Shown here: positions 41,718 through 59,700 of the stretch, one piece after another | How positions within the stretch are numbered: the first letter of the stretch is position 1 | Layout of the letters: the number at the start of each line of letters is the position of its first letter | DNA from: Psococerastis gibbosa | Taxonomy: Eukaryota; Arthropoda; Insecta; Psocodea; Psocidae | Length of the DNA stretch: 64,000 nucleotides | Assembly: GCA_963971405.1 (NCBI GenBank) | Contig: OZ020484.1 | Span: forward strand, 34,246,770-34,310,769 | Direction of reading: 5' to 3' | Program-made: the position numbers and the translations under genes | The notes under the pieces: model-generated | What the model was told of the DNA's origin: nothing | The model's database searches: none | What the model saw: the letters and a program-made list of their open reading frames with translations, nothing else

Positions 41718-44700
41718 GTGAGTACAAATACGAAGAGCCGTACCTAGCGTTACACTAGCATGCTTTATTATATATGAATTAGGCATAGTATGTTGTAACT
41801 GCCATTGACGTAAATTCCAAAAATTTCGGGGGGGGGGGACTTTAGGACCCCAAGACTTTGATCCCCCGGAGAAAAAAAATGATAAATGGGCCCAAATTAG
41901 TGAGGTGTTGCGCATGTTATACCCTGGAAAGAGGTGGGCCCGGGGGCAAAGACCCCCCCCCCCTTTTTTACGCCAATGGTAACTGCAAAGGCTTCCACGG
42001 CCTGAGTCGAATGAAGAACCAGTAGAATTCGGGCTGATGGGCCGTGGTCGAAATGAAAGTGAACTTCCAAACGTTTCGTCAACATCTGCGGTCGACTTCG
42101 AAGGTTGTACATCAGTGGCTCCGTAGCGAGTGACCGGGTAGGGGGCTGTGCACTGAGATTTATACCTGGGCCTGGACTGGGATTGCATGTACTTGACCAA
42201 TACATTAAAACACAGTAATAATGGCAGGGTAAATTATTAGATTTTCCATCATTTCTAACTTTTTTTTTCACAAAACAAAATCTTTGTTTGGGGAAGCAAC
42301 CTAATCGGTTTTATCATTCTATTTAACACCTAAAACATACCTGAAGGCAGAAAGCATCGATAGAAAGGTTACGCAGAAAAATTATTTTTTAGTACTTTTT
42401 TCATGAAAATTGATTCTTCTATTTTTTTACATTCTGAACCAAACTATCAAGGGGCAAGCAACCTATTGCTTTTTTTACCATTAATATTAATAACTACAAA
42501 ATATGTGGATTAAAAGAAAAATGTTTGAGCCGTGTTTGAGATAACATTTTTTAGCCGTTTTTTTATTGGCTGAAACCCCCCAAATAGAGTTAGCCCAAAA
42601 TACAAATTAAATTTCCGAGGTATTATTTCTATCAAAATCCATCGGGTAGTTTGCCCACAATTCGCGAACCCACCGACAGACAGACAGACATTTCGTAAAA
42701 AACACTTTTTTTGGTTTCTGGTACCTCAAAACTTGCAAACCCACTGAGTATTAATAATAGCCACCCGGTAGGGTGTTGTACAATAGGGGGCCAGTGGGTG
42801 CACTCACACAGTTCCTGTTAGACCGGGTGCCACCTATCCTTCGGTTCTGTGAAGTGGTGGCAAATTTTCACACTATGTCCGTAATAGTCCATTGGCTGGA
42901 TATGGCGAAAAGGGATTTCTGGCTGGCGGGAGCGGTAGCATTTGGACAGGGGATTTTTTTTTCGAAAATATTTTTAAACGAAAATTCACGAAACGAGTGG
43001 CACGTTGAGATGCTACCAAAATGACAAGTGGCACTCAAATATAGGTGTAAACTTCCTGCCAGAAGATTTTTCCATGGTTAACCCCTCTCCAGAGGGTGGT
43101 AAAATCAGCTGTGAGTACCAAAAATTTGCTGAAGAGGTGGCAAATTAAATTTACCTATGTGTGCAAGCTTGTCGCCTGACAATCATAAAAAACAGTATGC
43201 CAGACGTTTTTAGCGACAGCAACCCCTTGCCAGAAGGGTCGGAAATTTATCCTAGGGTGTTCTATGTTAAAAGGGTGGCAGCGGAAAAAACATTATACCG
43301 TATAGTACTTGTGAATATAATGTTAGAAATCTTGATCACAGACATTTTAGGTGCAATGGGGGTTGATACAGAAGGGTGGAAGTCACCAGCCAAGGTGCAA
43401 AATTAGTTGAAAAGGTGGCAACTTAATTTCGTCGTATACATCATTGGGTACTTCATATTCATCATTGAAATTTTTGTCCCAGAAGTTTTCTCATGCTTTT
43501 CCCTTAGCAAGAGAGGGTAGTAATTTATCTGGGGTGGGATTTCGATGTAAGGGTGGCACGGGAAATCCATCCTAAAACAGTTCCTTTGGACTAATTTATG
43601 GCGGGAAACAACCCCACAGATTATTATAGGGCGGTTAGGGGTGATCCAGAGGGGTGGAAAGTCAAATGCTGAGGGATAAAATTGGTTGAAGAGGTGGCAA
43701 TCTAAATCGTAGCTTAAATGCCTTAAATTGGTGCCTGGTTTACTATGTTATTGGTCACAGACATTACATTCGGTAACTACCCCTTCCCAGAAGGGATGGA
43801 AAATTTATAACCAGTTTCGATCCTTAAAGAGGGTGGCAGCGTAAAAAATGCTGGAAAGGGTCGCAAGCAAGTGTAGTATGGCAAAAAACTTACTCCCAGA
43901 ACTATCACTCACGGAGGGGTAGGTGACAGAAGGGTTCAAACCAGGGATGAAACGGAGAAAAGTGGCTAAAAAGGTGGCAACTTTATTTCTACCGTTTTGT
44001 TAAGTAAGTTACTACTAGTATCTGGAAAATTGTCTCCCAGAAATTTCTTTCTCATTTTTCCCCTACCCAGAAGGGGTAGAAATTTATCTGGGGTGGGATT
44101 TCACTATAAAGGTGGCATGAAAAATTCAACGCGAAATAGCTGCTTTTTGCCCATATATGGCGGGTAACCCAATGCCAGAATATTATATTATAATTAAGGG
44201 TGATCCAGAGGGGTAGCAAACCATAAGCTGAGGGATAAAATTATTTAAAGAGGTGGCGCCTTGAAATTTTGCTATGTGTTAGTATAGTTAACTGCAAGTA
44301 CGAAAAAATCGGTCCCAGAAATTTTATGCGATGCCTACCCCTCCCCAGAGGGGGTAAAAATTTATCAGGGGTGGGATTTCGCTGTAAAGGTGGCATGAAA
44401 AATCCAACGCGAAATAGCTGCTTCTTGCCCATATATGGTGGGTAACCCAATGCCAGAATATTATATTATAATTAAGGGTGATCCAGAGGGGTAGCAAACC
44501 ATAACCTGTAAATTCCATGAAAAGGTGGCGTCTTGAAATTTTGCTATGTGTTAGTATATTAAAATATGAGTACGAAAAAATCGGTCCCAGAAGTTTTATG
44601 CGATGCCTAACCCTCCCCAGACGGGGTAAAAGCAGGAAAGTCAATTTTAATCACTAACCCGGAATTTGTGCCAGTCTCTAATATTGATCCATTCATATTA

Positions 44701-56700: not shown

Positions 56701-59700
56701 CCCCGTCTGGGGAGGGTTAGGCATCGCATAAAACTTCTGGGACCGATTTTTTCGTACTCATATTTTAATATACTAACACATAGCAAAATTTCAAGACGCC
56801 ACCTTTTCATGGAATTTACAGGTTATGGTTTGCTACCCCTCTGGATCACCCTTAATTATAATATAATATTCTGGCATTGGGTTACCCACCATATATGGGC
56901 AAGAAGCAGCTATTTCGCGTTGGATTTTTCATGCCACCTTTACAGCGAAATCCCACCCCTGATAAATTTTTACCCCCTCTGGGGAGGGGTAGGCATCGCA
57001 TAAAATTTCTGGGACCGATTTTTTCGTACTTGCAGTTAACTATACTAACACATAGCAAAATTTCAAGGCGCCACCTCTTTAAATAATTTTATCCCTCAGC
57101 TTATGGTTTGCTACCCCTCTGGATCACCCTTAATTATAATATAATATTCTGGCATTGGGTTACCCGCCATATATGGGCAAAAAGCAGCTATTTCGCGTTG
57201 AATTTTTCATGCCACCTTTATAGTGAAATCCCACCCCAGATAAATTTCTACCCCTTCTGGGTAGGGGAAAAATGAGAAAGAAATTTCTGGGAGACAATTT
57301 TCCAGATACTAGTAGTAACTTACTTAACAAAACGGTAGAAATAAAGTTGCCACCTTTTTAGCCACTTTTCTCCGTTTCATCCCTGGTTTGAACCCTTCTG
57401 TCACCTACCCCTCCGTGAGTGATAGTTCTGGGAGTAAGTTTTTTGCCATACTACACTTGCTTGCGACCCTTTCCAGCATTTTTTACGCTGCCACCCTCTT
57501 TAAGGATCGAAACTGGTTATAAATTTTCCATCCCTTCTGGGAAGGGGTAGTTACCGAATGTAATGTCTGTGACCAATAACATAGTAAACCAGGCACCAAT
57601 TTAAGGCATTTAAGCTACGATTTAGATTGCCACCTCTTCAACCAATTTTATCCCTCAGCATTTGACTTTCCACCCCTCTGGATCACCCCTAACCGCCCTA
57701 TAATAATCTGTGGGGTTGTTTCCCGCCATAAATTAGTCCAAAGGAACTGTTTTAGGATGGATTTCCCGTGCCACCCTTACATCGAAATCCCACCCCAGAT
57801 AAATTACTACCCTCTCTTGCTAAGGGAAAAGCATGAGAAAACTTCTGGGACAAAAATTTCAATGATGAATATGAAGTACCCAATGATGTATACGACGAAA
57901 TTAAGTTGCCACCTTTTCAACTAATTTTGCACCTTGGCTGGTGACTTCCACCCTTCTGTATCAACCCCCATTGCACCTAAAATGTCTGTGATCAAGATTT
58001 CTAACATTATATTCACAAGTACTATACGGTATAATGTTTTTTCCGCTGCCACCCTTTTAACATAGAACACCCTAGGATAAATTTCCGACCCTTCTGGCAA
58101 GGGGTTGCTGTCGCTAAAAACGTCTGGCATACTGTTTTTTATGATTGTCAGGCGACAAGCTTGCACACATAGGTAAATTTAATTTGCCACCTCTTCAGCA
58201 AATTTTTGGTACTCACAGCTGATTTTACCACCCTCTGGAGAGGGGTTAACCATGGAAAAATCTTCTGGCAGGAAGTTTACACCTATATTTGAGTGCCACT
58301 TGTCATTTTGGTAGCATCTCAACGTGCCACTCGTTTCGTGAATTTTCGTTTAAAAATATTTTCGAAAAAAAAATCCCCTGTCCAAATGCTACCGCTCCCG
58401 CCAGCCAGAAATCCCTTTTCGCCATATCCAGCCAATGGACTATTACGGACATAGTGTGAAAATTTGCCACCACTTCACAGAACCGAAGGATAGGTGGCAC
58501 CCGGTCTATGTGGTCGAACTCAACAATGCTGTCAAGAGGTGTGTCTATAAACCTGTCCTTTATATATGCTGTGAAACAAGTATTCAAATTGAAAATTACT
58601 TTGTTGGAACTATTGGAAGTCTTGATAATAAAATTAAAGTTTGAACACAGCTCATAATTCTGAAGATCTCACTGATTTGACCCTAACTGCTGGATCGGAG
58701 TTGAGACCTATTTTTAATAGCTTTTGCATTATGTTTCAGTCGGAAGCCTATAAACTTGTCCCGATGGGGTTTACCACAGCCACCGAATTTCATCAGAAGC
58801 GATCAGAATTAATTCAACTGACAACTGGTTCATCAGAATTGGACAAACTATTAGGTGGTGGCATTGAAACTGGTTCGGTTACTGAATTATTCGGGGAGTT
58901 CAGAACTGGAAAGACACAATTGTGCCATACTTTAGCCGTTACTTGTCAGGTAAGCTTGAACGTTTTTCGTTTTTAGGTTAATATATATATATATACAAAC
59001 AATTTAATATATCCGATTCCCCTCTTCAGTCGCCTCTGTAGGTTAGTGCCCGTGTTGAGTTACGACACGTCTCCGATCGCATGGCGTGTAAAGACTCGCA
59101 AAAGTGCAAGCACGTTACCACACCACCTGGCCATCGAAGTCGACATAAAGTAATACCGTAGTCGAATTAAGAGTGTACAGCCCGTAGGAAATTGGCAGCC
59201 CGAAATTTAATACTGTTCATATTTTATTTTATTAACTAAGCATGCTTTTAAAGATTTGGCTCATCAAACTTGTAGAAGACTACTTCATGCATCATATTAT
59301 AAGATATTTTTAATTTTCGAAATTGTAGTTTTTTTTAGAAACATGCAAATATTTTATAAACAACAACTTTTCATGTATAATTGATTTATGTAAAAACTAC
59401 AATTTCGAAAACTAAAAACACCTTATTAAATGATGCATGAAGTAGTCTTCTACAACTTAAATGAGGCAAATCTAGCTTCTTCTTCTTGTCTTGAGGTGTT
59501 TTCAGGCGTCGACATTCCAGTCTTTACTCTGATATCATGTATTTCTATAAAAAGAAATTAATTAATAGTTCCGGTCTTTGAGACCACTTTTAAAATAGAC
59601 ATAAAATGTTTAAATGAGCATAAAATGTTTAAGTGAGAAAAAATGATGAAACAAAATGATGAAATGAGCGTAAAATTTAAAGAAATATTTTTCTTTTATC

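What the first reader, a model, noticed from the sequence alone, without database searches (positions are those of the whole stretch)
42819..58508. 15.7-kb inverted repeat with ~5-kb, near-identical arms inside RAD51 intron 1
The two arms (42819-47777, 53549-58508) pair base for base wherever compared, differing only by one base in a poly(A) run, across a 5.8-kb non-palindromic spacer. Such identity means a recent inverted duplication, ongoing arm-to-arm gene conversion, or a very large mobile unit. Placement inside the gene for the strand-exchange recombinase is notable, because large palindromes are themselves recombination and replication hazards.
Basis: partly seen in the sequence, partly recalled or inferred. 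Interest (0 to 1): 0.87.

Follow-up and report, generated by a model that had tools for sequence, protein, structure and literature searches.

The report
Giant foldback transposon in RAD51 intron
The mirror-image DNA inside an insect's RAD51 gene is a 15.7-kb mobile element with two nearly identical 5-kb ends, one of a family scattered through the same genome, and its ends appear to be rebuilt by copying one from the other.

Summary
The inverted repeat is real: arms 42819-47777 and 53549-58508, 99.94% identical, differing by two substitutions and one poly(A) base. It sits in the first coding intron of an intact, 337-aa RAD51. It is not a private duplication, and an assembly artefact is very unlikely. 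In the same 409-Mb genome the 16-base arm tip occurs 88 times (up to one mismatch), 64 of them as 32 inverted pairs 2.8-22.6 kb apart (random expectation 0.11). Of those 32 pairs, 30 carry an exact 3-bp target-site duplication, ours TGT/TGT. So it is one copy of a giant foldback-type TIR transposon family; no transposase was found in the copies read. One copy has only a 30-bp terminal repeat; others have arms of 1.8-7.2 kb, 98-100% identical within a copy. Comparison with relatives indicates that this copy's left arm is a copy of its right arm, joined onto a remnant of an older, shorter arm. The 3-bp target signature resembles PIF/Harbinger, but membership is not claimed. The nearest published architecture is the 14.6-kb module at the Anopheles 2Rj inversion breakpoints.

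The parts
42819..58508 (.). whole element, 15,690 bp, foldback-type TIR transposon copy
   Evidence: tip census and inverted pairing; 3-bp TSD
42816..42818 (.). target-site duplication, left (TGT)
58509..58511 (.). target-site duplication, right (TGT)
42819..47777 (+). left terminal inverted repeat arm, most likely a recent copy of the right arm
53549..58508 (-). right terminal inverted repeat arm, the likely template; its inner part runs on into the spacer as in the long arms of relatives
   Evidence: four relatives mapped, all four so
42819..42848 (+). 30-bp core terminal repeat, left
   Evidence: copy C12:23.85 has only this 30 bp as its terminal repeat
58479..58508 (-). 30-bp core terminal repeat, right
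   Evidence: as above
42849..44640 (+). subterminal tandem array, about 139-bp half units (278-bp dimers), GGTGGC motif at regular steps
56687..58478 (-). same array in the right arm
45022..45630 (+). old interspersed repeat X inside the left arm (mirrored at 55697-56305)
46912..47267 (+). segment R in the left arm (mirrored at 54059-54415)
47778..48128 (+). repair-type junction (AGTTC+TTC+TATTTTCAG) and remnant R' of an older, shorter left arm, ending at the spacer
52770..53825 (-). 327-bp repeat units that run unbroken across the right inner junction (53548/53549) but are cut at the left one
48129..52634 (.). spacer core bounded by an older 82% inverted pair (48128-48332 / 52634-52443)
51697..51894 (+). 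possible relic of a LINE-type reverse transcriptase (weak: RVT_1 E=0.027, below the curated cut-off)
41499..41717 (+). RAD51 first coding exon (host gene)
58740..58949 (+). RAD51 second coding exon (host gene)

Best explanation
It is one copy of a giant, apparently non-autonomous, foldback-type DNA transposon family. SHOWN: the element runs from tip to tip (TAGACCGGGTGCCACC...), is flanked by a 3-bp target-site duplication, and has 31 tip-paired relatives in the same genome. INFERRED: a transposase supplied in trans recognises the 30-bp tip, perhaps helped by the 139-bp tandem array, and inserts the element at CTWAG-like sites. INDICATED by comparison with relatives: the two arms of this copy were made equal by replacing a shorter left arm with a copy of the long right arm, which left a remnant (R') of the old arm behind a small end-joining-type junction. 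INFERRED: this happens when a break or transposase cut at one end is repaired by synthesis on the other end of the same element, and it recurs in the family, so that arms grow, shrink and stay nearly identical. In RAD51 the element lies in intron 1 and leaves the coding sequence intact.
For: Tips: 88 matches with up to one mismatch, 44 on each strand, against 0 and 1 for the reversed control. Pairing: 32 inverted pairs within 25 kb, random expectation 0.11, maximum 2 in 2,000 simulations. TSD: 30 of 32 pairs have an exact 3-bp duplication, none of 4 or more; T in first place in 22 of 30, TTA/TAA in 11 of 30. Colinearity: 15 other loci carry long matches, nearly all starting at the arm tip. Minimal tip: copy C12:23.85 (2,794 bp) has a 30-bp terminal repeat and a TSD. 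Arms by copy: in all 8 copies compared outside the young group B the outer 1,750 bp differ by 0-6 within the copy and by 6-19 from the nearest other copy (217 for C15:10.59); in the tree 6 of 7 group-A copies have L and R as sisters, the seventh (C13:37.14) being cut by the midpoint root. Arm length 1.8-7.2 kb in 16 copies, 4.0 kb in C15:10.59. Arm replacement: four mapped relatives have one short arm (R then TTGGGCATC) and one long arm; ours has the long arm twice plus remnant R'. C60 and C1:33.47 show long-arm copies joined to the remnant at other points.
Against: No transposase in the copies read; the long ORFs with a clear domain are those of a nested LINE, a pogo-like element and a Gypsy element, and 15 of the 32 pairs were read only at their tips. 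Two of 32 pairs lack the TSD (C14:4.03, where tips are nested, and C15:7.89), and 24 of 88 tips are unpaired. In the young group B, arms cluster by copy in only 1 of 7 copies, so re-copying does not accompany every transposition. R' resembles this copy's own R more than the short-arm R of relatives, which points to earlier homogenisation and weakens a simple one-step history; a deletion between R and R' in the relatives is the opposite polarity and was judged less likely only by parsimony. The source of copying (repair after excision, replication or meiotic conversion) is not shown.
Confidence: 0.92

Rival explanations
1. A local segmental inverted duplication: the right arm was copied, inverted, into the left side of intron 1 by template switching, or a micro-inversion with staggered breaks duplicated it.
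For: The right inner junction is ancestral and the left one is a breakpoint; Drosophila inversions leave inverted duplications by staggered breaks (PMC5080602 and PMC7584159, passages).
Against: The outer ends are shared with 31 other tip pairs and carry TSDs; spacer and arms are colinear with other loci. Copying probably did occur, but inside a transposon.
Confidence: 0.03
2. A true PIF/Harbinger element: a short-tipped Harbinger-type transposon whose non-autonomous derivatives grew foldback arms, mobilised by a Harbinger transposase.
For: 3-bp TSD, TTA and TAA the commonest (11 of 30), strand-summed target CC-TWA-GG; PIF/Harbinger elements have 14-25-bp TIRs and TTA/TAA TSDs (PMC2213677, passages); core TIR here is 30 bp.
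Against: 19 of 30 TSDs are neither TTA nor TAA; the tip TAGACCGGG lacks the G(N)5GTT motif of the plant elements in that paper; no transposase seen; the genome search for DDE_Tnp_4 did not complete.
Confidence: 0.45
3. Arms are identical because each transposition event copies one arm into the other (as LTRs are made at integration), not because of occasional conversion.
For: 8 of 8 copies outside group B have arms closer to each other than to any other copy.
Against: In group B, 6 of 7 copies do not, and three of them share the same 4,989-bp arm boundary, as expected if both arms are simply inherited.
Confidence: 0.15
4. Assembly artefact.
For: Near-identical 5-kb arms are hard to assemble; no reads were available here.
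Against: Contigs of 35-54 Mb (409 Mb in 68 contigs), arms that differ at three places, tip pairs at 31 other places, 29 of them with a TSD.
Confidence: 0.02

Closest known systems
14.6-kb low-copy-repeat module at the Anopheles gambiae 2Rj breakpoints (PMC1952172; passages and sections 6 and 10 part 1 read)
   Same: 5.3-kb arms of >99% identity around a 4-kb spacer, no coding capacity, patchwork of degraded transposons (a Harbinger fragment in the arms), a putative 8-bp duplication.
   Different: Its authors argued against a transposable element because no second full copy was recognised in the reference genome, subrepeats were lacking and it was not flanked by short TSDs; here 32 tip pairs, subterminal tandem repeats and 3-bp TSDs are present. 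No sequence comparison was made.
Galileo of Drosophila (P superfamily; PMC3573991, PMC4168063, PMC2775673; passages)
   Same: Foldback-like TIRs of variable length, tandem repeats inside TIRs, TIR growth by recruiting internal sequence, longest TIRs in non-autonomous copies.
   Different: TIRs up to about 1.26 kb, 7-8-bp TSDs, known transposase; here up to 7.2 kb, 3 bp, none found.
Tetris foldback element of Drosophila virilis (PMC4079207; passages)
   Same: TIR of an outer flanking domain plus about 220-bp tandem repeats, middle without coding capacity, non-autonomous.
   Different: TIRs up to 1.7 kb and 8-10-bp TSDs (assigned by its authors to Mutator).
PIF/Harbinger superfamily (PMC2213677; passages)
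   Same: 3-bp TSD often TTA/TAA; short core TIR.
   Different: Tip sequence, giant arms, no transposase seen here.

Membership tests
TIR (class II) DNA transposon family | several dispersed copies with the same precise ends in inverted orientation | tested here: met
   32 inverted tip pairs, random 0.11
TIR (class II) DNA transposon family | target-site duplication of fixed length | tested here: met
   3 bp in 30 of 32 pairs, never longer
TIR (class II) DNA transposon family | transposase encoded by the family or a tip-sharing partner | tested here: inconclusive
   none in the copies read; 15 of the 32 tip pairs were read only at their tips and one (C60) in part; DDE_Tnp_4 search not answered
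Foldback-like elements (structural class) | long TIRs with internal tandem repeats and a variable middle | tested here: met
   arms up to 7.2 kb, 139/278-bp array behind a 30-bp tip
Galileo / P superfamily | 7-8-bp TSD | tested here: not met
   3 bp
Mutator superfamily (Tetris-like) | 8-10-bp TSD | tested here: not met
   3 bp
PIF/Harbinger | 3-bp TSD of TTA/TAA type | tested here: inconclusive
   always 3 bp, but TTA/TAA in only 11 of 30
PIF/Harbinger | TIR motif G(N)5GTT (as given for Medicago elements) | tested here: not met
   tip TAGACCGGGTGCCACC; motif from PMC2213677, plants only
PIF/Harbinger | DDE_Tnp_4 transposase | not tested
   ten requests unanswered
2Rj-type low-copy inverted module | about 15-kb module, about 5-kb arms >99% identical, coding-empty patchwork | tested here: met
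   description from PMC1952172

The most novel reading that the evidence does not exclude
A new life style of foldback transposon: a short-tipped element (30-bp core) whose ends are repeatedly rebuilt from one another, so that terminal repeats reach the scale of large genomic palindromes (up to 7.2 kb) and change length faster than sequence; the enigmatic 2Rj module of Anopheles would be an element of the same kind; and the copy in RAD51 makes every RAD51 pre-mRNA carry a 4,957-bp RNA hairpin that could feed siRNAs against the repeats it contains.
Probability: 0.3. Interest if true: 0.72.

Novelty: new variant of a known kind. Interest (0 to 1): 0.58.

Why it matters
It turns a supposed palindrome oddity into a natural series of 32 tip-paired insertions in which the birth, growth and homogenisation of giant inverted repeats could be read copy by copy, with datable junctions. 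Such units are hazards for replication and sources of inversions. The best published look-alike I found, at the Anopheles 2Rj breakpoints, was classed as a non-mobile segmental duplication; this family suggests that verdict should be retested with tip searches and short TSDs in long-read assemblies.

Tried and rejected
Local inverted duplication, template switching and staggered-break micro-inversion were my working hypothesis up; the continuity of the 327-bp unit seemed to support them. The genome search overturned them as the origin of the unit.

Rfam: 0 matches at gathering score in the window. tRNA: none. Tip or array patterns in viral contigs: none. An array 16-mer in prokaryote contigs gave 64 loci, fewer than the roughly 120 expected for a random 16-mer in 257 Gb (my arithmetic), and BLAST of arm plus spacer against them gave no hit (64 records). 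Extension of the array into either flank: no clear evidence (left 13 against 11.9, right 16 against 12.7 in shuffles). Hairpins of three array units and of the left tip region: not more stable than shuffles beyond z = -1.44. Spacer orientation differs between copies, but this says nothing, because an inverted insertion looks the same.

Age: 2 substitutions in 4,959 sites correspond to about 70,000 generations since the arms were equalised (8,000-250,000), with a recalled insect rate of 2.9e-9; later gene conversion would make this a minimum.

Literature searches in which I saw no report of this family (listings and abstracts' starts). Of the papers cited, I saw only passages, except PMC1952172, of which I also read section 6 and part 1 of section 10.

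Full report
OBSERVATION. Arms 42819-47777 and 53549-58508 align over 4,960 columns at 99.94%. They differ by one A in a poly(A) run and by two substitutions, at 47549/53777 and 47710/53616. Both substitutions fall in the inner 229 bp (P about 0.002). The spacer is 5,771 bp and there is no N in the window.

HOST GENE. Five exons (41499-41717, 58740-58949, 60122-60330, 60954-61083, 61617-61862) splice into a complete 337-aa RAD51 (Pfam Rad51 in exon 2). Of the five splice models printed I chose the one without extra or missing residues against known RAD51. 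The nearest named relative is Lycorma delicatula at 87%, and one unnamed sequence reaches 90% (best 120 of 7,874 listed); the host is thus probably a hemipteran insect (inference). The repeat lies in the 17-kb first coding intron, its right tip about 230 bp before exon 2.

A FAMILY. After many unanswered requests, the window's genome (409,210,807 bp, 68 contigs) was searched with the left arm (122 match rows, 32 of 11,890 candidates scored, so a lower bound). Long matches appear at 15 other loci, nearly all starting at the first base of the arm and in inverted pairs. The tip TAGACCGGGTGCCACC with up to one mismatch occurs 88 times (44 on each strand; reversed control 0 and 1). I paired adjacent plus/minus tips within 25 kb: 32 pairs, 24 single tips; random placement gives 0.11 on average and at most 2 in 2,000 trials. 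The pairs are 2.8 to 22.6 kb long; ours is 15,690 bp.

TARGET-SITE DUPLICATION. Of the 32 pairs, 30 have an exact 3-bp duplication directly outside the tips, and none a longer one. The misses are C15:7.89 and C14:4.03, whose tips are nested. TTA and TAA make up 11 of 30; the first base is T in 22 of 30 and the last A in 16 of 30. Summed over both strands (so symmetric by construction, which is fair for an element with two equal ends) the target is C at -2 (31 of 60), T at -1 (38 of 60), A or T at 0 (54 of 60), A at +1, G at +2. Our copy has TGT on both sides. This is the mark of insertion by a transposase.

NO TRANSPOSASE SEEN. In the 15 copies first read, ten ORFs reach 140 aa. I gave 8 of the 10 to Pfam: the clear domains belong to a LINE (L083/L084), a pogo-like transposase (L094, in an insert that interrupts the arm) and a Gypsy element (L095). 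A scan of 52 of 65 interior ORFs of 65 aa or more, from seven copies, gave no transposase (one weak RVT_1). Sixteen of the 32 pairs were read in full, C60 in part, and 15 only at their tips, so an autonomous copy may exist. The DDE_Tnp_4 search did not complete.

ANATOMY. A 30-bp core tip is followed by a tandem array with GGTGGC at steps of 135-141 bp, one step being double, then old interspersed repeats, segment R, and 327-bp units. Copy C12:23.85 has only the 30 bp as terminal repeat and still shows a TSD, so long arms are an added feature. Arm lengths differ by copy: 1.8, 2.0, 2.0, 3.0, 3.2, 3.2, 3.9, 4.3, 4.6, 5.0 (three copies), 5.9, 6.7 and 7.2 kb in the 15 copies, with ours at 4.96. 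These are near-identical blocks colinear from the two tips, 98.1-100% identical; some join blocks across nested inserts, values next to an insert (such as 4.3) are lower bounds, and in C60 and C1:33.47 the outermost part is interrupted. C15:10.59 is nearly a palindrome of 8.7 kb, with 4.0-kb arms (99.1-99.9%) and a 0.5-kb spacer.

ARMS EVOLVE TOGETHER. Over the outer 1,750 bp I compared 15 copies, leaving out C60 and C1:33.47, whose tips are interrupted, and C12:23.85, which has no long arms. In 9 of 15 the two arms of a copy are closer to each other than to any arm of another copy, 1 is a tie and 5 are not. The 8 copies outside the young group B are all in the first class; in group B, where left arms of different copies differ by 0-7 sites, it is 1 of 7. 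In the tree 6 of 7 group-A copies show L and R as sisters; C13:37.14 is split by the midpoint root, its left arm diverging beyond 1.78 kb. Hence arms are equalised from time to time, but not at every transposition.

HOW THIS COPY'S ARMS BECAME EQUAL. Relatives C1:38.09, C1:42.69, C3:19.83 and C3:49.34 have one short arm, in which R runs directly into the spacer, and one long arm that continues past R into the inner part of our right arm and the spacer. L073 (C1:30.17) has the same short-arm junction. Ours carries the long arm on both sides, and on the left a second, truncated R (R', 47781-48128) that still runs into TTGGGCATC. The joint reads AGTTC-TTC-TATTTTCAG, while relatives L075, L077 and L087 read GATTATTTTCAG. 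The 327-bp unit is continuous across 53548/53549 but cut at 47777. The simplest account is that the left arm was replaced by a copy of the right. C60 and C1:33.47 have long-arm copies joined to the remnant at other points with other filler, so such events seem to recur. Against a simple history, R' shares more variants with this copy's own R than with the short-arm R of relatives, so earlier homogenisation must have occurred; and the reverse polarity, loss of the part between R and R' in the relatives, is disfavoured by parsimony only.

MECHANISM. Shown: mobile family, 3-bp TSD. Well indicated: arm replacement. Inferred: the tip is cut by a transposase in trans; breaks at one end are repaired by synthesis on the other end of the same element, ended by end joining. 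In Galileo, TIRs grow by recruiting internal sequence and the authors invoke recombination between the close inverted repeats (PMC3573991, passages), but at up to about 1.26 kb.

COMPARISON. The module at the 2Rj breakpoints of Anopheles gambiae has 5.3-kb arms of >99% identity and a 4-kb spacer of transposon debris (PMC1952172, passages and sections 6 and 10 part 1). Its authors rejected a transposon for want of other copies, subrepeats and flanking TSDs. All three exist here. Foldback elements Tetris and Galileo share the architecture but have 8-10 and 7-8-bp TSDs. PIF/Harbinger has a 3-bp TTA/TAA TSD, but the tip motif given there is not met and no transposase was seen, so I do not file the family there.

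CONSEQUENCE FOR RAD51. The coding sequence is intact. An RNA through the intron could pair 4,957 bp (evaluated energy about -9,211 kcal/mol); 306 of 4,939 21-mers of the arm recur elsewhere in the window, 266 of them in R. A small-RNA role is speculation.

Noticed in passing
window 13104-18028: Gypsy-type element with identical 156-bp LTRs and a 1,455-aa ORF, nested inside a BEL/Pao element (ORFs 10246-13116 and 18011-20568); flanks share CTTTC, so a recent insertion.
   Followed up: partly
L103 (C15:10585580-10594267): A further subfamily (about 77-90% identical to ours in matching blocks): 8.7-kb element that is almost a palindrome, 4.0-kb arms and about 0.5-kb spacer, TSD CTA.
   Followed up: partly
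L104 (C12:23850529-23853322): 2.8-kb derivative with a terminal repeat of only 30 bp, TSD AGA; marks the shortest mobile end seen.
   Followed up: yes
L097/L098 (C19:3651416-3669891): Arms of 7.2 kb that have taken in part of the spacer, the longest seen.
   Followed up: partly
L094:4312-6792: 827-aa open frame of a pogo-like transposase (DDE_1, HTH_Tnp_Tc5, Psq) nested in the arm of copy C15:7.89.
   Followed up: partly
C14:4031421-4043659: Three tips close together and mirrored flanks (tattatgtat / atacataata): an element nested in or forming a larger palindrome.
   Followed up: no
window 22332-22578, 34497-34729, 59252-59473: Short self-complementary hairpin repeats, MITE-like.
   Followed up: no
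window 47549 and 47710: Both substitutions between the arms lie in the inner 229 bp, next to the related 327-bp units; may mark the edge of conversion tracts.
   Followed up: partly
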